Below, piece by piece: positions 21,775-38,636 of a stretch of DNA of 64,000 nt (position 1 is its first letter; every line of letters starts with the position of its first letter). The stretch lies in NCBI RefSeq assembly GCF_008831075.1, contig NZ_WBJX01000002.1, positions 62,001 through 126,000 on the forward strand, given 5' to 3'. A program made the translations under genes and the position numbers. Source of the DNA: Pseudoclavibacter terrae. GTDB taxonomy: Bacteria > Actinomycetota > Actinomycetes > Actinomycetales > Microbacteriaceae. The notes under the pieces are model-generated. The model searched no databases. It saw only the letters and a list, made by a program, of their open reading frames with translations, and was not told the DNA's origin.

Positions 21775-21849
<75 letters not shown>

Positions 21850-22274: not shown

Positions 22275-23453
22275 ATGAGTCGGCAGCGTTTGCCATCGGC
22301 AGCTTCGGGAGATTGGCCACCTCGTGAGCCCCGGCGGGCTGCTCGTCGCGCGTGCCCGTTACCGCGACTGGACGGCAAGACGCGGCTCGTCCAAGCGACC
22401 GGGGATACTCGGAAGTCGGCAGAGCGGGCGTTGAAGGCGAAGCTCGCTGACCGGAGTCTCTTCCAGCCGTCGTCCTCGGCGCTGACCCCGGACAGTCCGT
22501 TTCCGGACTTGGTCGCGTACTGGCTCGAAGACCTCGAGCTTGAAGACCGGCTCTCCAAGCGCACCCTGCCGCTCTATGAGCGGAACGTGCAGACGCTCGT
22601 CCTGCCGGTCTTCGGGCACTTGACCTTGCGGGAGATCGGCGTCGCCCGTTGTGACCACTTCCTCAAGCAGCTCGCGAAGCAGAGCTACAACCGCGCCAAA
22701 CGGGCCCGTGTCGTGCTGCGCCTGGCGCTCGGCCTCGCCGTCAGACATGAGGTGCTGCCGCCTAACCCGATGGATCATGTCTCGCGACTGCACCGGCCGG
22801 GGTCGACGCCGAACGCGCTGACGTCTGCGGAGGTGAACGCGGTCCGCGCGGCGATCGCGTTCTGGGAGGCCGGACGCTCGATCTCCGGTCCGAAGCCCGA
22901 CGAGCAGCTCGGGGCGATCGTCGAGGTCATGCTCGGTACCTCCGCCCGTATCGGCGAGGTGCTCGCCATTCATCCTCGGGACATCGATGTCACCAGTCCG
23001 ACCCCGTCCATCCGGATCACCGGCACGATCGTCAGTCACTGCGGCGAACCGACCACGCGGCAGGACCACCCGAAGACAGCGAAGTCGCGGAGGACTGTGG
23101 CGATCCCGTCGTTCACCGCGGAAGCCGTGCGGCGGCGCCTGGCGCGCCTGGAAGACCTGTCGCTCGACGCGCTGCTGTTCTGCAGTCGCGAGGGAACGCC
23201 GCTGACCACGAACAAAGTGCGCCGGCAGCTTCGGCACGTGCTCGACCTTGCCGGGGTCGCCGGCGTCACCCCGCACGTGTATCGCCGCACCGTCGCGACC
23301 GCGATCGACCAGCAGGCAGGTGTCGAGCTCGCTGCCGAACTGCTCGGGCACACCGATCCGAAGATCACGATCCAGCACTACATCCGCCGCAGTGAGATGG
23401 TGAAACCGGTCACCGCCGAGATGCTGGAGCGGGCGTTCGCTAAGGAACAGTGA
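22275..23453 (+). CDS. Tyrosine site-specific integrase (N terminus frame-scrambled)
   Basis: 392 aa. The core-binding domain (about 75-165) and catalytic domain (about 180-390) carry R225 (in ARIGEV), H334 and R337 (HVYR), H359 (LGHT) and nucleophile Y369 (QHY). It recombines the tRNA-Pro att sites. Residues about 8-31 do not look like an integrase. The expected family sequence (IGSFG, then EIGHLVSPGG...RARYRDW) is found in the other two frames of the same DNA, which implies three single-base deletions that together restore the frame. The catalytic part is intact. See findings. Confidence 0.9.
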   Translation: MSRQRLPSAASGDWPPREPRRAARRACPLPRLDGKTRLVQATGDTRKSAERALKAKLADRSLFQPSSSALTPDSPFPDLVAYWLEDLELEDRLSKRTLPLYERNVQTLVLPVFGHLTLREIGVARCDHFLKQLAKQSYNRAKRARVVLRLALGLAVRHEVLPPNPMDHVSRLHRPGSTPNALTSAEVNAVRAAIAFWEAGRSISGPKPDEQLGAIVEVMLGTSARIGEVLAIHPRDIDVTSPTPSIRITGTIVSHCGEPTTRQDHPKTAKSRRTVAIPSFTAEAVRRRLARLEDLSLDALLFCSREGTPLTTNKVRRQLRHVLDLAGVAGVTPHVYRRTVATAIDQQAGVELAAELLGHTDPKITIQHYIRRSEMVKPVTAEMLERAFAKEQ

Positions 23454-24114: not shown

Positions 24115-25698
24115 CTACACGAAATCCTCTTCCGCGGCGCCGTGCAGCCCTAGCTTGGCGATCTCCGGCCGAAGCTCGACACAGACTTCCTCCGGGTTCG
24201 GCCCGATGAGCACACGGTCCATCAACGCGTTGTTCAGAGGCTTGCGATCTGCGGGAGCCGCTGCGAGGTAGCGGTCGTAGGCGTCTTCGAGGAGATCGAG
24301 CGAATCCGCCAAGTGCTTCATCTGGAACACGACATCGTCGCTCGGGCTCTCCTCCTCAGCCTTGGTACGGAAGAGTGACTCGGCCAACTTGCGCTGCTCT
24401 TTGACGAACAGGTCGCGAGGCAGGGCATCGGAGTAGTAAGCCTCGAGGACTTTCTCTTGGCGCAGCCGGATCTCTTGCGCCTGCGCGGCGAGGTCTGATC
24501 GCCTCTGCCCGGAGCCGGATGCTTCCGCCGCGAGCTGATCCTGCCAATGCCTCTCGATCGCGTTGCGTCGGTGAGTGGAGATCTGGATCCGTTCGTAGGC
24601 CTCCTCGACGCGACGCTCCACGTCGCTGATACGTAGCGCGCTCTGGGTGCATCGCGGTGTGCCGTGCTGGCGGCCGGAGCAGACGAAATAGTCGTAGACG
24701 CGCCCGCTCTTCGACCGAGCGTTGTGGACCAGCAGACGGCGTTGACAGTTGAAGCAACGGATCGTGCTCTTGAGATAGTGCGTGTGGATGCGGCCGCGTT
24801 CACCTTGACGCCGAGAGGCGAGGAGACATTGGACGGTATCCCAGGTCTTCACCGGGCCCATCGGCTCATGGCTTCCTGCATGCTGTGCGCCGTTCAGCGT
24901 GACGATGCCCTTGTAATAGAGGTTCGTCAGCACATGGTGAAGACTCGCGACAGTCAGCGCCGCGGGGGAACGGGAAGCAGTCGCCCGAGTCCAAAGTCCT
25001 CCGTCCCGAAGTGCTGCGACCAGCTGAGCGACGCTCCACTCGCCAGTGGCATAGGTGTCGAACGCCCAGGTGATGTGTGGCGCCCGTTCGTGGTCGAGTT
25101 GGATCGCTCGATACTCATGTCCGTCCTCGGTCTGGCGGCGGACGTTGAGGTAGCCGATCGGCGCGCGTCCTGGTGTTCCGCCCTGGATGGCTTTCTGCCG
25201 CATTCCCCTCATGACTTCTTGCGCGAGGTTGCGCGAGTAGAACTCCGCGATCGACGCCATGATCCCGTGCAGGAGGACACCGTTCGGCGTCGTGTCGAGG
25301 CCTTCGGTACTTGATATGAGACGGGCGCCCGCAGCATGAACGGCCTGGGTGATGGCGATGCCGTCGGCTCGAGAGCGAGCGAGGCGATCGAGCTTATGAA
25401 CGATGACGTAGTCGACTGGATGCTCCTGCAGATAGGTGAGTATTCGTTGGAGCTCTGGGCGATTCAAATTTCGTCCTGATTGACCACGATCAACGAATTC
25501 GGCGGAGATGAGAGCGCCTAGCCCATGCGCTTGCTTCTTGTTCGCCTCGCGCTGCGCTGGGATAGAGAAGCCGTCTCGCTCGCCGCCCTTGTCTACTTGC
25601 CGAGTAGTCGAGACACGGACGTACGAGACGGCCGATAGCGGCGAAAACGACACAGCGGCAAGGGAGCAAAGTGGGGATGTTTGAAGTGAGTTATTCAC
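24115..25698 (-). CDS. Large serine recombinase
   Basis: 527 aa. The N-terminal resolvase domain has the nucleophile in AVSYVRVSTTRQ (about S30), followed by VDRGQSGRNLNRPELQ and VHKLDRLARSRADG. A recombinase domain (about 180-290), a zinc ribbon (CFNCQRRLLV...CSGRQHGTPRC, about 318-360) and a C-terminal coiled region (about 370-450) follow. This is the architecture of large serine integrases/transposases. It is a second recombination system inside an element that already has a tyrosine integrase, so a nested or composite element is possible. Translation may start further in, at about residue 24. Confidence 0.92.
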   Translation of the reverse strand: MNNSLQTSPLCSLAAVSFSPLSAVSYVRVSTTRQVDKGGERDGFSIPAQREANKKQAHGLGALISAEFVDRGQSGRNLNRPELQRILTYLQEHPVDYVIVHKLDRLARSRADGIAITQAVHAAGARLISSTEGLDTTPNGVLLHGIMASIAEFYSRNLAQEVMRGMRQKAIQGGTPGRAPIGYLNVRRQTEDGHEYRAIQLDHERAPHITWAFDTYATGEWSVAQLVAALRDGGLWTRATASRSPAALTVASLHHVLTNLYYKGIVTLNGAQHAGSHEPMGPVKTWDTVQCLLASRRQGERGRIHTHYLKSTIRCFNCQRRLLVHNARSKSGRVYDYFVCSGRQHGTPRCTQSALRISDVERRVEEAYERIQISTHRRNAIERHWQDQLAAEASGSGQRRSDLAAQAQEIRLRQEKVLEAYYSDALPRDLFVKEQRKLAESLFRTKAEEESPSDDVVFQMKHLADSLDLLEDAYDRYLAAAPADRKPLNNALMDRVLIGPNPEEVCVELRPEIAKLGLHGAAEEDFV

Positions 25699-26069: not shown

Positions 26070-27827
26070 ATGCGTCGCACGATTCAACAATTCATGTGGG
26101 GATATCAGCCGCACTTTCGGTACAGTCTCGAAAAACTCGCGGCGCATGTGCTTGAGTCGATCGGCATCCATGGTGCGCCAGAAGCACTGCTGATCGGGTT
26201 CCGCGAAGAGGGTGCGTCGCCTTGGCCCATCTGCATTGAGCCGGAGAGTCGCGGCTACGAACCGTCGCAGCTCGCGGACGTTGTCGCCGTCGCCGATGAC
26301 CGTCTGGAGCAGCATCCCGACGCCGGAGTTTTCTATAGCGACGCCGGCCACCACGAGAGGATGATGAAGGCGCGCCTTGAAGAGTGCCGAAGAGATTCGA
26401 TTGCCGAAGAGCTTGAGGGCAGTTCACCCGGGGCCGGTCGCCTTTTCTTCGTTGGGTATCCACGCCGTGTAGATGACTATCGGGTCTACCCAGTGGTCTC
26501 AGTTTTGCGTACTGTCTGGGATCGCTATCCTCGCCTCACGCACGTCCACCGCAATGGTCGCATTGTGACGATCGAGTCGATGCAGCGCGCCGTGATGGAG
26601 GAGGTCGTCAGGACGGCGTCGGCGGATCTGGACCGGCGCGAACCGCCGCAGGAGCTCTCGGACTGGCCACATGTGATGGCACCCGATGTGGTGCGGCGGG
26701 GTGCCGAGCGATTTCTGCGGTCGCTCGTTGCGGCGCACGGATCTTGGGAAGGTACGGAGTTTATGAGCGCGATGGACTCGGTCGCGGCGCAGCCGTACGA
26801 GGGGCGCACCGCGGTGGGGTCCTTGATCCTAGGGAAGCCGGACCACCCCGCACTTTCGTACGATCTCCGATTCGAACCACCACTCAAACTTCGAAAGTCA
26901 CGGGTCTTCAGGAAGACGCTCGAGATGTCCGGAGTCGCGGTTTCGCTCATCTCGGACGGGGCAGAGATCGTGGGGTTGGGGCGAGCACAGGCCACGTATG
27001 ACGCGGACTCGGAAACTCTGTTCCAGGTGACGGTTGTCGCTCGCGGGGCATGGGAACTCGCTCACGCCGGGGTCGGATTGATGCGCGTCGAGAACGGTCG
27101 CGCGCAGCTTCCCCAAGAGCGCATATCCCGTGAAGTGTTTGTCGACACGGCGCGCCGAGTTCTCGGAGACGAGACACATCCCGACAAGCTGTGGTCTCAG
27201 GTCGAGGGTGCAGTGGATCAGCAGCACGGAACCATGCTGGTTGTTCACCGCGATGCCGATGCGGAGGCTTCGCGGCTGGGTGCGCAAGCCACGCTTATCG
27301 ATCCCACCGAGCTGACCGCGGAGGCACTCGCGGCGGTCACCTCTATCGATGGGGCAGTCCTCCTGAGGCCAGACGCCACTTGCGTTGCGGTCGGCGTCAT
27401 CCTGGACGGCACCGCTACTGCATCGATCGGCGACGCGTCGCGGGGTGCGAGGTTCAACTCGGGCATGCGGTACCAAGCAGCATCTCCAGGAGGGTGCCTC
27501 GTGGTGATCGTGAGCGAGGACGGGATGATCGATCTCGTCCCCCGCCTTCCCCGACGAGTCAGACGCTTTGACGTGGAGCGGGCCGTCCAGCGTCTGGAAG
27601 ACGCGGCGGGCGCGGCTGACGTCGACTTCGAAGTAGCCACCGATCGAGCGGACCACGTCAGTTCGCTCGCGTTCTACCTCACCCCTGAACAGTGCGCGCG
27701 ATGCAACGCCTCGAAGGCCCTCATAGAAGAGGCAAGAGCGAAGTCCGGTGGCGCATTCATTCGCGTCGGTTGGAACCCTCTGAAACCCGACCCTGAGCTA
27801 GACGATTCCTATTTCCTGCCCGAGTAG
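26070..27827 (+). CDS. DisA-like nucleotide-cyclase/sensor domain protein
   Basis: 585 aa, ATG with only a weak ribosome site. The C-terminal part (about 385-490) resembles a DisA_N diadenylate cyclase domain: the DGA motif at 427-429 (SIDGAVLLRPD), GMRYQAAS at 465-472 where canonical enzymes have GTRHRAA, and VSEDGMIDLVP at 481-490 for the VSEE strand. The N-terminal 370 residues have no family I recognise; they may be the sensor half described for DAC-associated proteins. It could make or sense a cyclic dinucleotide. The H-to-Y and R-to-Q changes at the RHR motif make catalysis doubtful. A lone gene within the island, next to STAND and HEPN genes. Confidence 0.7.
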   Translation: MRRTIQQFMWGYQPHFRYSLEKLAAHVLESIGIHGAPEALLIGFREEGASPWPICIEPESRGYEPSQLADVVAVADDRLEQHPDAGVFYSDAGHHERMMKARLEECRRDSIAEELEGSSPGAGRLFFVGYPRRVDDYRVYPVVSVLRTVWDRYPRLTHVHRNGRIVTIESMQRAVMEEVVRTASADLDRREPPQELSDWPHVMAPDVVRRGAERFLRSLVAAHGSWEGTEFMSAMDSVAAQPYEGRTAVGSLILGKPDHPALSYDLRFEPPLKLRKSRVFRKTLEMSGVAVSLISDGAEIVGLGRAQATYDADSETLFQVTVVARGAWELAHAGVGLMRVENGRAQLPQERISREVFVDTARRVLGDETHPDKLWSQVEGAVDQQHGTMLVVHRDADAEASRLGAQATLIDPTELTAEALAAVTSIDGAVLLRPDATCVAVGVILDGTATASIGDASRGARFNSGMRYQAASPGGCLVVIVSEDGMIDLVPRLPRRVRRFDVERAVQRLEDAAGAADVDFEVATDRADHVSSLAFYLTPEQCARCNASKALIEEARAKSGGAFIRVGWNPLKPDPELDDSYFLPE

Positions 27828-28725: not shown

Positions 28726-31700
28726 TTAGAAGCGCGGAACTCGCGGAACCCAGTTGTTCTCGAGTGCGACCCTTTCTAGTACGCCCTTCCCCAGAGGGCG
28801 CGTCGACTCTTCGGCGTACAACACCCACTCCATCGGGTATCGGCCGGGGTCTCGGAGAACTTCGGTCGCCAGGTCTCGGTCCAGTGCGATCGATGCTCCG
28901 CCGATTCCGGAGAGCGAGTCCAAGCCGAGTGCAGCGACACCCTCAAGCAAGGTAAGGGAAGGGGACGTCTTGATTCGCGCGGCCAGCGCCTCTGCAATCG
29001 GCCAGTACGCTGCCTCAGCGCAGGCGAGGTCCCGCAACTGGCCACCGGTGAGTTCGGGGATGTCGGTCATCGATAGCCGGGGATTCTGGAAGTGACTAAG
29101 TAGGAGCAGCGTCCGCGCATTCGCACCTGGCGAACTGATGCTCGCTGGCAGCATCCGAGCAGAGCCGTTCTGGCTGATTCGGCTTGACGACGCGGCGGTC
29201 GCCGAGAACTCCGCCGGAGGCAGGTTGGCCAGCACGGCATCGACCCGAGCGAGATTGGCTGCGACAGCTTCGACTGAGCCCGCCGCAATGAGTGCCAGAA
29301 CCCATGTGCGGCGCGACAACTGGTCCGGGCATGCGTCGTGCTGCTCGGCCCACCACGTTGCTTCTGGTCGTCTGCGTACCTCGATGACAAGAGTCCCGTA
29401 GTCCACGTCCGGGCCGAATGGCACCCCGTCTCGGTCCTTGGAACCTGACGCGACGAGGTCAACGGCTGCCGCACCGGTGACTGCAATCTCCGCGGCAAGC
29501 CAGGATGGGCCGTGGATTCGCGTGAGCTCCCGAGCGGGAGCCTGCCAGGGCTCCGTCGTGCCGCCCTGTGAGTGTCCTCTCCGAGCGGACCTACGGAGAG
29601 CAGCGTAGGCCGGGTTGATGTCGAGAAGTCGCGTCCAGGCGGCGTTCCGGGCACCCTCATCTACTCGGTCGACAGCGAGATGCCCGTTGGGCACCAATGC
29701 CGGCGACTGCTTGCCTGGTACTCCGCGATGGAACCACTGCGGCCGCATCGCAAGCAAGAGCGCGCCGGCTTCACCCGCACCTCGAGATTTCGAGTCGGAT
29801 GCACGGCCTTCGAGGACGGCGGACAGCATCCCTTGCGAGAGAGGGCTACCTGGAGACGCGGCCGCGCCCACGCCGAGTGCAGCCTCCGACACGGCCGCGG
29901 TCGAGCCCGTGAGCTTGTCGCTCGCATCTGCATCTAGCTTTCGGATACCGTACGCGCATCCGATGGTCAGCCATTGGGCCTCACCCTCAGTTCCAGTGGC
30001 ATGACGCAACTTGTCGCGCCACCACAGTTCGAAGTCTGCGCGCGCGATAGAGGACTGATTGCGCAGCATCTCCACTCGAGCCACGGCGAGGTGGTGTGTC
30101 GGATTGCGCTCAAGGGCCGCTTGCAACGAAGTCGCGAGCTGCGCGCCGCCCGAGTCGAGCGCGAGTGCAGGAAAGTCTGAAGAGTACTGAGGTTCCCGCG
30201 CGAGCATCACGGTGAGGTCGTCAGTCAACATGCCGACGACGTCACGTTGCACGCGGGTATTGCCGACGAAAACGGCGTCCGACAGGAGCGCCCAGGATGC
30301 GACGCGGTACTCGATGGCAGTGTGTTCGGAACCGAGGGCGTCCTCGACTCCGTATCGCAGAGCGGCCAGTTCGTTCGGCGAAGCAAAGCCTGCGTAGAAG
30401 CGGGCGGTGTTGAGCCAGTATGGGCGGCCGAGCAGCTCGCGGAGTACCGACTGTTTGGACAGCGGTTCTCGTTGTTCGCGCCCAGCCCATTCGGCGAGGA
30501 ACCGCGCTGCGAAATACTCCCGCACTGGCTGCACCGCGAACTTGAACAACTCGTCCGTCTCGCTGGTGAGGGCCCAGAACCGGTCAGAGGCCGCACGGAA
30601 TAAGGTCGCGGCGTCATTGCTGTCGGCGCCGACTTCGCGGAGATAGAGCATCAAGGTCGTCTCGATGTCCTTCCGCGTCATCGCGCCCGCGGTTGGGTTC
30701 GTTTCGACCCCCGCCTGCATATGCCACCCGAGGAACGCCGTGACTTCCTGCACCTGCGCCACGGCGTTGCGTCCAATCTGTCCTCGCGCCACCTCACGGT
30801 CCATCAAAGTCGACATGTAGTCGGCGTACAGCGGCGTGCGGGCGACTGGGACCGAGTCACCCTTCTTGCTGATGAGGTATAGCAGGATAGCGAGCTGCAT
30901 CGGGTTGTCTGCGAGTTTTGACACGTGGTCGAGCGACGTTCGGTCGCGAAAGATTCGCCGGAGTTCCGTGCGCGCGGCGCCGTCGATGCGGCGAGCATCA
31001 CACCACTTGATGACGAACTCGTTCTGGAGAGCATCGTCCATGGGGTCAAGCCGCACCCGCTGAAACTGGTCTGCAGACGGTTCTGCAAGACCAGTGGCGT
31101 TGGGGCGCGCGGTGACGACAATCTGAAAGGAGCGCAACTGCGGCTTTGGAAGAGCCATCCGGGCCGCAAGTGCCTCAACTTCTTCGACGATAATCCGCCG
31201 CAATTCCGGATCTGCCACCTCATCCAGGCCGTCGAAAACGATGAGACACGGGTAACGCTCCAGCAGGCTGTGAACGTCTTCGACCGTCACGTCGCGCCCG
31301 CCGCTCGCTGCCACGCACAACTCCGCGATGTAGCACTCCGCACTGCGTGTCGCCCTGGAGCGCCGCTTTGAGATGCGTGGGCGCTCGTCGTCGAATGTGT
31401 CGAACCCGTCGACCCAGGCGGCGTACTCTTTCAGCTCGACCCGGAGCGGTAGCTTTGGCTCGCGGATGGGGACAGACGGCGGAACAAAGCCGCTCGTCTC
31501 CTGAGCAAGGATGACAGCGCGATGCACCTGGCAGAGGAACTGCGTCAAAGTGGATTTGCCCTGGCCAGGCACCCCCATGAGAAATGTCAAAGGCACGTGC
31601 GCGTCGAGCAAGGAATCGACAGCGCCACGCGGGCGCGTGCTCGCGAGAATGGGGTTGCGCTGGAACTCCCGCACAGCATTCCTCGGTGCTGCGACCAAAG

Positions 31701-32418
31701 ATGCGCGAACGTCAACGAAGAGCTCTGCGAGGCTGACGCGGTCCATCTCCACCTGCGAGAACCGGACCTGCGCGTCGTTACGCCACTGGTCTGCCAACAC
31801 CTTCGTCATCGTTTCCCGCATTCGAGCCGCAGACGCTTCGAGTTGCGTTCCGAAGATGAGATAGCGGATGGCGTCCGAGCCCGCGAGCATCTCCTGGTAC
31901 GACCACTTGACGCCGTCCCCGGCGTGGTCCACCTCAGCATCGATGTCTGCCTGCCACCAGCATTCGACCTCGATACCCAGCTTTGCCGAGTAGTCATTGA
32001 GGGTCTTCTGGAGCTTCTGCAAGCTGCCCGTACCCTTCGACGTCGTCGTCGCCGCCACCGAAGTCATCAGGATGTAGCGAGTCGCGCGACCTTCATTAAC
32101 GAGCTTGCGAATCTTGTCGAACTCGGCCTGGAGAGTGGCCTCCAGCCACGTCGCAGGGTTCTGCTGGTGCTTGCTTGTCCACTTCACCTGGTAGACGATG
32201 CTGCCGTGCGAGATGGCGTCGATGCCCTCGTCAGCCATTCCGACCGGGAAGCACTGGACCGGGTCGTACTTGGCTCGCAGGAGCGCTCCGCACAACTGCT
32301 GAAACTGTTTCTCCGACAGACGCCAGTAGAGGTACCTGAAGGTGTTCCCCGCTTGGTACTCCGGACCGCGCGGACGACGCGCAGACGACGGACCGGACCT
32401 TTGACGACCAGATGTCAC
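28726..32418 (-). CDS. Mrr-like nuclease-NACHT STAND ATPase (Avs/bNACHT-like defence protein)
   Basis: 1230 aa. The N-terminal domain (about 30-190) has the restriction-endonuclease fold signature: EGID (D67) then YQVK (Q77, K79), the D...QxK active site of Mrr-type nucleases. A NACHT ATPase follows, with Walker A GVPGQGKST (282-290) and Walker B LIVFDGLDE (392-400). The remaining 750 residues are helical with repeat-like character, suited to target sensing. The plan effector-NTPase-sensor matches bacterial STAND immunity proteins that oligomerise on detecting phage proteins and cut DNA. All key residues seem intact. The exact subfamily cannot be named without a profile search. Confidence 0.88.
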   Translation of the reverse strand: MTSGRQRSGPSSARRPRGPEYQAGNTFRYLYWRLSEKQFQQLCGALLRAKYDPVQCFPVGMADEGIDAISHGSIVYQVKWTSKHQQNPATWLEATLQAEFDKIRKLVNEGRATRYILMTSVAATTTSKGTGSLQKLQKTLNDYSAKLGIEVECWWQADIDAEVDHAGDGVKWSYQEMLAGSDAIRYLIFGTQLEASAARMRETMTKVLADQWRNDAQVRFSQVEMDRVSLAELFVDVRASLVAAPRNAVREFQRNPILASTRPRGAVDSLLDAHVPLTFLMGVPGQGKSTLTQFLCQVHRAVILAQETSGFVPPSVPIREPKLPLRVELKEYAAWVDGFDTFDDERPRISKRRSRATRSAECYIAELCVAASGGRDVTVEDVHSLLERYPCLIVFDGLDEVADPELRRIIVEEVEALAARMALPKPQLRSFQIVVTARPNATGLAEPSADQFQRVRLDPMDDALQNEFVIKWCDARRIDGAARTELRRIFRDRTSLDHVSKLADNPMQLAILLYLISKKGDSVPVARTPLYADYMSTLMDREVARGQIGRNAVAQVQEVTAFLGWHMQAGVETNPTAGAMTRKDIETTLMLYLREVGADSNDAATLFRAASDRFWALTSETDELFKFAVQPVREYFAARFLAEWAGREQREPLSKQSVLRELLGRPYWLNTARFYAGFASPNELAALRYGVEDALGSEHTAIEYRVASWALLSDAVFVGNTRVQRDVVGMLTDDLTVMLAREPQYSSDFPALALDSGGAQLATSLQAALERNPTHHLAVARVEMLRNQSSIARADFELWWRDKLRHATGTEGEAQWLTIGCAYGIRKLDADASDKLTGSTAAVSEAALGVGAAASPGSPLSQGMLSAVLEGRASDSKSRGAGEAGALLLAMRPQWFHRGVPGKQSPALVPNGHLAVDRVDEGARNAAWTRLLDINPAYAALRRSARRGHSQGGTTEPWQAPARELTRIHGPSWLAAEIAVTGAAAVDLVASGSKDRDGVPFGPDVDYGTLVIEVRRRPEATWWAEQHDACPDQLSRRTWVLALIAAGSVEAVAANLARVDAVLANLPPAEFSATAASSSRISQNGSARMLPASISSPGANARTLLLLSHFQNPRLSMTDIPELTGGQLRDLACAEAAYWPIAEALAARIKTSPSLTLLEGVAALGLDSLSGIGGASIALDRDLATEVLRDPGRYPMEWVLYAEESTRPLGKGVLERVALENNWVPRVPRF

Positions 32419-32789: not shown

Positions 32790-33671
32790 TTAGCGAGCTG
32801 TCTGGTCACCTGCGTCGTGCTGTGCAACCCAATCACCAGCAGCAGGAAGTAGCCGATCGAGCACCGCTAGTCCTTCGGATACGTCGTCTCTTGAGACTTC
32901 GCGGGCGTGTGCAATCGCATTGCGAAGTTGTCGCACGCTGTCGAGCGCCGGTGCGTAATCCGCGATGAACCACTCCTGGACGCGACGTTTCTGAGCCTCT
33001 CCCGTGGTCGGGCGGCCTCTGCCGCGGAGAGCGTGAAGATCCAACACATCGGCGAGTGCCTCGTATTTCTCGAGCAACTCCATCTTGAGCTCGGCGACGC
33101 TGGACGCGACGCGATCGCGCTCCTCGGGCGGCCCGTCGGCACGGTAGCCCCCGGCGTCGTTTGCTACTCGAGCGCTTTCCTCCCGCAATCGTTGGCGCTC
33201 ATCTGGGCCCCATGCATCCGAGCCGAAGTGGTTATGAACCACAGCGGAGGCAGTTGAGTTCGCTCTGACAACGGCGTTGATCTGGACTTGCTGGAGTAGC
33301 ACCGTCGCGCGGAGGTCCTCAATCCCTTTGCGCGCTGCCGTTGCCTTGGACTCCGCAGCGGCGATACGGCGCTTCAGGGTCACCCCGAGCACAGTCACCT
33401 CCGAGATATCAGGCCACAGCAGCGCGACAACCAGGAGCAGCACTAGGAGAACGGTCGCGCTTGTGATTGTCGGTGGAGCGCAGGTCACCTCGGAGCTTGC
33501 GAGGTCGTTGATGTCAACACTCCGAACGAACGTGCACTCACGGTAGATCCAGATCGTCGCGATCGCGAATGTGACAAGAAGCGCGAAGACTGCCAACAGA
33601 CGCGCAACACGCCATCCGCGCTTAACTGACGGCACCGTTGGATCGTCGCGCGGAGGAGTTGGAGTCATCAC
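32790..33671 (-). CDS. Membrane-anchored protein with HEPN-like C terminus
   Basis: 293 aa. Two transmembrane helices (about 23-43 and 73-87) are followed by a charged helical, probably coiled-coil region (about 98-140) and a C-terminal helical domain ending RQLRNAIAHAREVS. R250-N-A-I-A-H255 matches the R-x4-6-H catalytic motif of HEPN ribonucleases. If real, this would be a membrane-tethered RNase effector, a design seen in toxin and defence proteins. No family is certain. It lies upstream of the NACHT gene on the same strand, 371 bases away. Confidence 0.6.
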   Translation of the reverse strand: MMTPTPPRDDPTVPSVKRGWRVARLLAVFALLVTFAIATIWIYRECTFVRSVDINDLASSEVTCAPPTITSATVLLVLLLVVALLWPDISEVTVLGVTLKRRIAAAESKATAARKGIEDLRATVLLQQVQINAVVRANSTASAVVHNHFGSDAWGPDERQRLREESARVANDAGGYRADGPPEERDRVASSVAELKMELLEKYEALADVLDLHALRGRGRPTTGEAQKRRVQEWFIADYAPALDSVRQLRNAIAHAREVSRDDVSEGLAVLDRLLPAAGDWVAQHDAGDQTAR

Positions 33672-36508: not shown

Positions 36509-38047
36509 ATGGGTGCCGTCAAAGAGTTCTTGATTCCACACCTCGCGCCGCTCGCGACGCCATACCTATTCGTCGGAGCTGGACTCTCACGCCGCTTCGC
36601 GGCGCTTCCCTCGTGGTCCGAGCTGCTGCGCTTGTTTGCGGACAAGACAAGCCAGCCCTACGAGTTCTACCTGTCGGCGGCGAACGGCGACCTGCCCTTG
36701 GCAGCAACCAAGATCGCCGAGGCGTTTCATGGTGTCTGGTTTAGCGATCTGGAGTATGAGGACAGCCGCAGCAAGTGGCAGTCAAAGGTGGTCGATCAGG
36801 CCGGGCCACTGAAGATCGAGATTGCGAAGCTCCTCGATAAGCAAGTGGCGGCGATGACGATTCCGCAGGCCCTCGAGGCCGAATGGGAGTTGCTAAAGGC
36901 CTCGACAGTGGACGGCATCGTGACCACAAACTACGACCGCGTACTGGCTGAGGCCTTCCCCTCGTACCTCGAGTACGTCGGTCAAGAGGGCATGCTGTTC
37001 TCCGACACTCAGGGCATCGCTGAAACCTACGCGATCCATGGTTCGACGCGTGACCCGATGTCGCTTGTCCTGACACAGTCCGACTACGAGCGATTCGACG
37101 CCCGGAACGCTTACCTCGCGGCGAAGCTGATCACAATCTTCGTGGAGCATCCGGTGGTGTTCCTCGGCTACAGCTTCAATGACGGCAATGTGCAACGGAT
37201 GCTGACTGCCATTGTGCAGGGACTCCAGAACCACAGCATCGACAAGTTGCGCGACCGTCTCATCTTCGTCGAGTGGCGTGCCGACGGCGATGCTTCAGTG
37301 GAAGTGACTGACGTCAATATCAACGGCCACCTGCTGCCGATCACGCGCATCAGAACGCCCGACTGGACTGAGGTTTTCGAGGCGTTGGGCTCGCGGAAGC
37401 ACGCACTCCCAGCTCGGACCCTGCGCATACTGAAAGAGCAGGTCTACGAGATCGTCAAGTCCAATGATCCCAAAGATCGGCTCTTCGCATACGCAGACAT
37501 CGACTCGGCCAAGGCGGAGGACATCTCAATCGTCTTCGGTGTTGGCGCTAAGATCGCGGCGACTGGAATCGTCGGCATGAACCGAAGCGACATCATCGAT
37601 GACGTTCTCGAGAACCCTCCCGGTGGGCTTCCGGCCGACGACATCCTTCAACTGCACATTTCGAAGATTCCGAGCAACTGGTGGTATCCCGTGTTCAAAT
37701 ACCTGCGCGAAGCCGGGCACCTCGATTCTGACGGCAAGATCCTCGACGAAACGGTGCTGCCAACTCAGGTGGTCAAACTCGCCCAGCGAAACCGGGCCGA
37801 AGTCGTCACGAAGTTCCGCTACCGCCGTCGCGGCACGATGGCCGCGCTGGAAGCCAAGCACGACTGGCGGTGGATGTTCTCGAACTTCCTGGAAGTACCG
37901 TCTTACATCAATCTCGCGAGCGACCTGCGCGAATACTTGATCGATAACGCCGGAAAGCTGGAAACCGAGCCTCCGTACTGGCATACCAATTACTCCAAAG
38001 GCGTGGTCGCCTACGACTACATCCGCTACGGGCTTGGTTGGAGCTAA
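36509..38047 (+). CDS. SIR2-like domain protein (putative NADase defence effector)
   Basis: 512 aa. The SIR2 fold occupies about residues 15-260: GAGLS (23-27) for NAD binding, TTNYD (139-143), the catalytic-type His in YAIHGS (H177), and FLGYSFND near 220. In bacterial immunity, SIR2 domains hydrolyse NAD+ to stop phage growth. The zinc-binding cysteines of true deacetylases are absent, which fits the NADase branch. The C-terminal 250 residues are of no family I recognise and would be the sensor. It appears to act alone: no HerA, Argonaute or TIR partner is adjacent. Confidence 0.82.
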   Translation: MGAVKEFLIPHLAPLATPYLFVGAGLSRRFAALPSWSELLRLFADKTSQPYEFYLSAANGDLPLAATKIAEAFHGVWFSDLEYEDSRSKWQSKVVDQAGPLKIEIAKLLDKQVAAMTIPQALEAEWELLKASTVDGIVTTNYDRVLAEAFPSYLEYVGQEGMLFSDTQGIAETYAIHGSTRDPMSLVLTQSDYERFDARNAYLAAKLITIFVEHPVVFLGYSFNDGNVQRMLTAIVQGLQNHSIDKLRDRLIFVEWRADGDASVEVTDVNINGHLLPITRIRTPDWTEVFEALGSRKHALPARTLRILKEQVYEIVKSNDPKDRLFAYADIDSAKAEDISIVFGVGAKIAATGIVGMNRSDIIDDVLENPPGGLPADDILQLHISKIPSNWWYPVFKYLREAGHLDSDGKILDETVLPTQVVKLAQRNRAEVVTKFRYRRRGTMAALEAKHDWRWMFSNFLEVPSYINLASDLREYLIDNAGKLETEPPYWHTNYSKGVVAYDYIRYGLGWS

Positions 38048-38604: not shown

Positions 38605-38636
38605 GGGGTCGCGGGTTCAAATCCTGTCAGCCCGAC
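38605..38636 (+). repeat. attR core
   Basis: GGGGTCGC then GGGTTCAAATCCTGTCAG and CCCGAC, matching tRNA-Pro 21818-21849 at 31 of 32 positions. No tRNA 5' half lies before it, so it is not a second tRNA gene. It marks the right boundary of the island. Confidence 0.92.

What the first reader, a model, noticed from the sequence alone, without database searches (positions are those of the whole stretch)
26070..27827. Divergent DisA-like cyclase or sensor inside a defence island
The C-terminal domain has the DGA (427-429) and VSED (482) landmarks of diadenylate cyclases, but the RHR motif reads RYQ. The N-terminal 370 residues are unassigned. Nucleotide second messengers drive CBASS-like immunity, yet cyclic-di-AMP-type cyclases with this layout are little described there. 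It may be a signal producer or receptor for a neighbour.
Basis: partly seen in the sequence, partly recalled or inferred. Interest (0 to 1): 0.75.

Follow-up and report, generated by a model that had tools for sequence, protein, structure and literature searches.

The report
CBASS-free relative of anti-phage DS-2 cyclase
This gene encodes a diadenylate-cyclase-type enzyme of a family already shown to be needed for one phage-defence system, but it belongs to an actinobacterial branch in which the usual partner genes of that system were not found.

Summary
The ORF is real: 585 aa, 26070-27827 (+). It is DACNG (residues 9-216), DACNH (231-333), then a divergent DAC domain. The DAC fold holds: Foldseek best E 5e-7 with the domain model. 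It matches NCBIfam DS2_3_antiphage end to end, at 564.6 bits against a cut-off of 630. DS-2 is a CBASS (phospholipase plus cGAS-like enzyme) with a DAC; mutating two predicted catalytic DAC residues abolished defence (PMC13092281, passages).

R461 and N463 are invariant in 20 of 20 aligned rows.

New here: the protein sits in a supported branch of 8 intact actinobacterial DACs (98/99). None of the 8 genomes hits a DS-2-type CD-NTase profile or Cap15, yet active-site residues are kept. Four of four full-length CBASS-linked members scanned score above NCBI's cut-off; six of six others scanned score below. 0 of 15 genomes of the host family hit the standard DAC model. The gene lies in a 16.8-kb tRNA-Pro element with SIR2 and NACHT genes. 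New variant of a known kind; effector unknown.

The parts
26070..27827 (+). DACNG-DACNH-DAC protein, 585 aa, DS-2-type diadenylate cyclase homologue
26094..26717 (+). DACNG probable sensor domain (residues 9-216)
   Evidence: PF21752, E 1e-48, 166.5 bits, cut-off 27
26760..27068 (+). DACNH probable sensor domain (residues 231-333)
   Evidence: PF21750, E 6.2e-26, 90.8 bits, cut-off 27
27120..27554 (+). DAC (diadenylate cyclase) domain, about residues 351-495
   Evidence: no PF02457 match of its own; domain model pLDDT 87.4 matches DAC structures, best E 5e-7; relatives match PF02457
27348..27356 (+). DGA motif, D427-A429
   Evidence: D and G invariant in 20 of 20 rows
27450..27458 (+). true RHR-equivalent, R461-F462-N463
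   Evidence: register; R and N invariant in 20 of 20, middle residue Y 14, F 4, L 2
27468..27476 (+).
27513..27521 (+). S482-E483-D484, counterpart of the VSEE landmark of DACs
   Evidence: S and D invariant in 20 of 20 rows
21775..21849 (+). tRNA-Pro (ggg), integration site
21827..21849 (+). left attachment repeat, 23 bp
   Evidence: exact repeat with 38614-38636
38614..38636 (+). right attachment repeat, 23 bp
22275..23453 (+). tyrosine integrase
   Evidence: PF00589, E 9.4e-18
24115..25698 (-). large serine recombinase
   Evidence: PF00239, E 6.6e-33
28726..32418 (-). NACHT NTPase with an N-terminal part resembling that of REase-TIR Argonaute-associated proteins
   Evidence: PF05729, E 1.1e-6; PADLOC E 2.3e-6 over residues 29-129
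36509..38047 (+). SIR2 protein, PADLOC candidate defence family PDC-S25
   Evidence: 458.6 bits; PF13289, E 1.2e-22

Best explanation
An active or activatable nucleotide cyclase of the DS-2 DAC family. DACNG and DACNH (shown as sequence matches, their sensing role inferred) sense infection or a cell state it changes and switch the C-terminal DAC domain (fold shown by prediction), which joins two nucleotides into c-di-AMP or a close relative (inferred). In CBASS-linked relatives this second messenger helps control the CBASS effector. In the window's branch no CBASS was found, so the messenger must act on another receptor: an unlinked host protein, a product of the same island, or the cell's metabolism directly through nucleotide consumption. 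The outcome is phage defence, probably by growth arrest or death of the infected cell (inferred).
For: DAC fold of the domain model: 63 PDB chains at E <= 0.001, and the 50 listed are DisA, CdaA, CdaM, DacA or DacM-type entries. Full-length match to DS2_3_antiphage, E 2e-169. DS-2 passages: DAC needed for defence, two predicted catalytic residues each essential, 15 of 30 homologues beside CBASS (PMC13092281). Invariant D427, D446, R458, R461, N463, Y468, S482, D484 in 20 of 20 rows, the CBASS-free ones included. In one CBASS-free genus dN/dS is 0.093-0.126 over three pairs. The gene lies in a tRNA-borne element with a SIR2 and a NACHT protein.
Against: The window protein is only about 31% identical to the Citrobacter DS-2 DAC and scores below NCBI's equivalog cut-off. 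PF02457 does not match it. The second arginine and the histidine of RHR are changed in every row, and RHR to AAA abolished ATP binding and activity in a DisA-type enzyme (PMC3328451, passages), so activity or product may differ. The full-length model gives only weak structure hits (best E 0.043, none <= 0.001). No effector was identified. One genus carries broken copies, one close relative (G499) has an in-frame TAG near its start, and the Kytococcus-G833 pair gives dN/dS 0.595.
Confidence: 0.6

Rival explanations
1. Decoy or guard logic, as in Panoptes: the DAC makes its nucleotide constitutively, which holds a toxic effector off or saturates phage sponge proteins; loss of the nucleotide during infection releases the effector.
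For: Panoptes OptS constitutively makes 2',3'-c-di-AMP and OptE is a Cap15 homologue (PMC12657218, passages). Two CBASS-linked DAC loci found here carry Cap15 (G566; L036). Two cyclases in one operon fit a signal plus a decoy.
Against: No Cap15 in the window's genome or in the other 7 genomes of its branch. DACNG and DACNH look like regulatory input, which a constitutive enzyme would not need. The DS-2 result (catalytic mutants lose defence) fits either reading.
Confidence: 0.15
2. A nucleotide sensor rather than a producer: the altered RHR has lost catalysis and the DAC fold binds a nucleotide made elsewhere.
For: RHR is not conserved in any of 20 rows; RHR to AAA abolished activity in a DisA-type enzyme (PMC3328451, passages).
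Against: R461 is kept, as are D427, S482 and D484, in 20 of 20. Mutating predicted catalytic residues of the DS-2 DAC abolished defence, although a binding site could also be destroyed that way. No CD-NTase or standard DAC was found in the window's genome to make a ligand.
Confidence: 0.15
3. A chromosomal stress or housekeeping c-di-AMP enzyme with no role in phage defence in this branch.
For: In three genomes of one genus the gene sits in the Pup locus, and dN/dS there is low. DACs are best known as housekeeping enzymes (general knowledge).
Against: In the window it is cargo of a tRNA-Pro element with defence-type genes. It is patchy: 1 of 10 genomes of the genus, 8 of 396 of the order above cut-off. 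Six of the seven other DAC-bearing actinobacterial genomes tested have a separate DAC match.
Confidence: 0.1

Closest known systems
DS-2 DAC (NCBIfam NF053872, DS2_3_antiphage; DefensePredictor, PMC13092281)
   Same: Full-length match over 576 of 576 model positions, same DACNG-DACNH-DAC order as the Citrobacter member; same invariant residues.
   Different: About 31% identical to the Citrobacter member; 564.6 bits, below the cut-off of 630; no phospholipase-plus-CD-NTase pair beside it, and no DS-2-type CD-NTase found in the genome.
DisA and CdaA diadenylate cyclases (PF02457)
   Same: DAC fold, DGA and the serine-acid landmark.
   Different: R-[YFL]-N instead of RHR, other N-terminal domains, no PF02457 match of its own.
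CBASS
   Same: Relatives of the protein sit in CBASS operons with patatin, Cap15 or an unassigned partner.
   Different: No CD-NTase or Cap15 match in the window's genome with the three profiles used.
Panoptes (PMC12657218, passages)
   Same: A cyclic-dinucleotide synthase in phage defence outside CBASS.
   Different: The synthase is an mCpol, not a DAC; its Cap15-like effector was not found here.

Membership tests
Diadenylate cyclase (DAC) domain | DAC fold | tested here: met
   Domain model pLDDT 87.4; Foldseek best E 5e-7, 63 chains at E <= 0.001, the listed 50 all DAC-type. The full-length model alone was weak.
Diadenylate cyclase (DAC) domain | PF02457 profile match | tested here: not met
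   No match for the window protein. Of 10 relatives scanned, 4 pass the cut-off, 1 matches below it, 5 do not match.
Diadenylate cyclase (DAC) domain | DGA and RHR motifs | tested here: inconclusive
   DGA met; RHR is R-F-N, with first R kept.
Diadenylate cyclase (DAC) domain | c-di-AMP synthesis from ATP | not testable with these tools
   Needs protein.
DS-2 DAC (DS2_3_antiphage) | Full-length profile match at the curated equivalog cut-off | tested here: not met
   564.6 bits against 630, E 2e-169, model 1-576 of 576.
DS-2 DAC (DS2_3_antiphage) | Domain order DACNG-DACNH-DAC | tested here: met
DS-2 system | Adjacent patatin phospholipase and CD-NTase | tested here: not met
   Neighbours are a serine recombinase and a NACHT protein; A5 CD-NTase profile and SMODS negative in the whole genome.
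CBASS | CD-NTase plus effector | tested here: not met
   Limits: SMODS missed the G566 CD-NTase and A5 missed the Priestia one, so a divergent CD-NTase could be missed.
Anti-phage function | Protection against phage | not testable with these tools
   Known for DS-2 from PMC13092281 only.

The most novel reading that the evidence does not exclude
A CBASS-independent immune second-messenger system of Actinobacteria: a single DACNG-DACNH-DAC protein detects infection and makes its own cyclic nucleotide, possibly not ordinary c-di-AMP given the invariant R-[YFL]-N, in hosts whose family appears to have no other diadenylate cyclase, so the signal has no housekeeping background.
Probability: 0.35. 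Interest if true: 0.7.

Novelty: new variant of a known kind. Interest (0 to 1): 0.42.

Why it matters
DS-2 was reported as a CBASS that may use two cyclases, leaving open whether the DAC is an accessory of CBASS or an immune module of its own. A supported branch in which no CBASS partner was found, while the active-site residues stay invariant, makes that question testable. The window's host family, where 0 of 15 genomes hit the standard DAC model, would give a background in which any c-di-AMP-like signal comes from the defence protein.

Tried and rejected
RYQ as the RHR counterpart: rejected. A second DACNG hit in the genome (C1:69140, 22.2 bits, below cut-off): the locus reads as ABC-transporter genes, taken as chance. 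SMODS alone as a test for CBASS: rejected, because it missed the CD-NTase beside Cap15 in G566; I then built profile A5 from four such CD-NTases. A5 has its own limit: its hits in G566 and G665 are rows of the model itself, so they are no independent control, and it missed the Priestia CD-NTase that SMODS finds. SMODS was run on 5 of the 8 genomes of the branch (G000; G148, G640, G499 and Kytococcus), not on G1022, G1028 or G833. Profile comparison of A1 with three DisA DAC rows: probability 83.9%, E 7.7e-6, but aligned only up to residue 437, short of the RHR site. Sequence search of the PDB with the window protein alone: nothing at E <= 10. Phage records: no match in 50,697. Single-sequence viral scan: nothing. 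A common neighbour gene in the CBASS-free branch: none seen, but most neighbour genes were not scanned. First gene calling of L017 chose wrong frames and was redone with window codon usage.

Papers. PMC13092281, PMC3328451, PMC12657218: passages only. The Galperin 2023 DAC survey is cited in PMC13092281; its text is not held and I saw nothing of it. Searches for print on this layout: (listings); apart from PMC13092281 I saw no title there on a DAC in phage defence. (DAC motifs) was also a listing.

Full report
1. The gene. Window 26070-27827 (+) is an open frame of 585 aa. Pfam gives DACNG over residues 9-216 (E 1e-48) and DACNH over 231-333 (E 6.2e-26); there is no DAC (PF02457) match. PADLOC has no model that matches it. 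NCBIfam NF053872, DS2_3_antiphage, matches over the whole model (1-576 of 576) at 564.6 bits, E 2e-169, under its cut-off of 630.

2. Is the C-terminus a DAC? By sequence alone, barely: nothing in the PDB for the single protein, and one weak profile hit, 2fb5, E 0.031 (recalled as a DAC of Bacillus cereus, titled a hypothetical protein). Relatives help: of 10 scanned, L035, L038, L027 and L028 pass the PF02457 cut-off, L037 matches below it, and 5 do not match. A full-length AlphaFold2 model (7 rows, pLDDT 74.6, weakest over residues 445-475) ranks DAC structures in its first 13 places but with no E <= 0.001 (best 0.043). A model of the domain alone (residues 351-585, pLDDT 87.4, pTM 0.78) gives 63 chains at E <= 0.001, best 5e-7. 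The 50 listed are DisA, CdaA, CdaM, DacA or DacM-type entries (two, 3c1y and 2fb5, by recall of what they are), with TM-scores normalised by the query of about 0.3-0.4. I take the DAC fold as established.

3. The motifs. Alignment of 20 intact or start-truncated rows: D427, G428, D446, R458, R461, N463, Y468, S482 and D484 are invariant; position 462 is Y in 14, F in 4, L in 2. The register of RHR was set with the 2fb5 alignment and with an alignment from DisA (RHR-TA) through actinobacterial DAC-like proteins (RHR-SA, RHT-SA). RHR to AAA abolished ATP binding and activity in the M. tuberculosis DisA orthologue (PMC3328451, passages). That leaves activity of the R-[YFL]-N form open, but the DS-2 DAC lost defence when two predicted catalytic residues were mutated (PMC13092281, passages; the residues are not named in those passages).

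4. Identity of DS-2. The Citrobacter plasmid locus L025 has patatin, nucleotidyltransferase and DAC in a row. Its DAC scores 803.8 bits on DS2_3 and its nucleotidyltransferase 468.2 bits on DS2_2, both above cut-off. The same operon is found at 84% identity in 18 of 5,426 E. coli genomes; in two of the eight listed records it is annotated as anti-phage phospholipase, nucleotidyltransferase and protein. The passages of PMC13092281 describe DS-2 as phospholipase, cGAS and DAC, with 15 of 30 DAC homologues beside a CBASS.

5. Which relatives have CBASS. CBASS partners beside the DAC: Gluconobacter plasmid (patatin and nucleotidyltransferase), Citrobacter plasmid, Priestia plasmid (SMODS nucleotidyltransferase), G566 (Cap15 and nucleotidyltransferase), viral contig L036 (nucleotidyltransferase; Cap15). 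Of 12 actinobacterial DACNG genomes tested with CD-NTase profile A5, only G566 matches, and its protein is a row of that profile. Cap15 is found in 1 of the same 12, G566. Eleven are negative: the window's genome, G148, G316, G640, G386, G499, Kytococcus, G1022, G1028, G833, G844. SMODS was negative in the first seven of these and not run on the last four. SMODS missed G566, and A5 missed Priestia, so neither profile is complete. Among the other records, A5 or SMODS found no CD-NTase in the Phycisphaera and Dyadobacter plasmids or in contigs L035, L037, L038 and L039; the contigs may be fragments, and L035 begins at the DAC.

6. The branch. A tree of 16 rows (in 91 the long-branched Priestia, L037, L038 and L039 rows and the broken G316 and G844 copies were left out) puts the window with G1022 (50% identity), G499, Kytococcus, G833, G640, G148 and G1028 at 98/99 support; none of the 8 is CBASS-linked. 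The 17-row tree gave the five then known at 96/94. DS2_3 scores follow the split: Citrobacter 803.8, G566 760.9, L036 721.4 and Gluconobacter 712.2 are above 630; L035 578.1, window 564.6, G1022 559.8, G640 521.8, Kytococcus 495.5 and Phycisphaera 395.3 are below, and so are G386 580.7 and G148 519.9. dN/dS is 0.126, 0.093 and 0.098 among G640, G148 and G1028, 0.595 for Kytococcus-G833, and 0.186 for window-G1022, where dS is saturated (2.55). So purifying selection is shown for one genus only.

7. Background in the host. 0 of 15 genomes of the window's family (10 of its genus, itself included) match PF02457. Of 7 other DAC-bearing actinobacterial genomes, 6 have a separate strong match and G499 has none. 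PF02457 does not see the window's own DAC, so this excludes standard DisA or CdaA-type enzymes only. The search for DACNG found one true copy in the genome. The gene is patchy: 1 of 10 genomes in the genus by NF053872, 8 of 396 in the order above the DACNG cut-off, 7 of 296 in the class.

8. Surroundings. The gene lies in a 16.8-kb element between a tRNA-Pro (21775-21849) and a 23-bp repeat of its 3' end at 38614; G+C is about 63% inside and about 69% in the six kilobases measured upstream. Inside are an integrase, a serine recombinase, a NACHT protein with an N-terminal part like Argonaute-associated REase-TIR proteins, and a SIR2 protein of PADLOC family PDC-S25. The 293-aa protein at 32790-33671 has only sub-threshold HEPN matches. 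No gene pairs with the DAC in an obvious operon: the flanking genes are on the other strand.

9. Mechanism. Most likely a sensor-controlled cyclase whose product is an immune messenger (0.6). Shown: domains, fold by prediction, invariant residues, mobile context, absence of hits for known partners. Inferred: sensing, catalysis, product, effector, defence. Rivals are a Panoptes-like decoy (PMC12657218, passages), a catalytically dead sensor, and a non-defence enzyme.

10. Verdict. A known kind (DS-2-type DAC), and within it a CBASS-free actinobacterial branch: new variant. The names DACNG and DACNH come from Pfam; I found no paper in the held library that uses them in this sense.

Noticed in passing
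L030, L034, L048 (G148, G640, G1028): In three genomes of one genus the DAC gene lies between pup and pafA, with an asparaginase gene on the other strand. Pup, Pup ligase and asparaginase were confirmed by Pfam in L034 only; in the other two the reading rests on gene order and protein starts.
   Followed up: partly
L031 (G316) and L050 (G844): Both genomes of another genus carry the DAC in pieces in two reading frames, in similar surroundings.
   Followed up: no
L037:7898-11131: On a viral contig a DACNG-DACNH-DAC gene follows directly after a phage portal gene (PF04860, E 2.7e-47).
   Followed up: no
L038:7502-10051: On a viral contig a DACNH-DAC protein carries a C-terminal extension with weak TPR matches.
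   Followed up: no
window 28726-32418: A 1230-aa NACHT protein whose residues 29-129 resemble the start of Argonaute-associated REase-TIR proteins.
   Followed up: no
window 36509-38047: SIR2 protein of PADLOC candidate family PDC-S25, 458.6 bits, at the far end of the same element.
   Followed up: no
L007-L011: A separate actinobacterial DAC-like family with DGA and RHT or RHR, intermediate between DisA and the DS-2 type in this motif.
   Followed up: no
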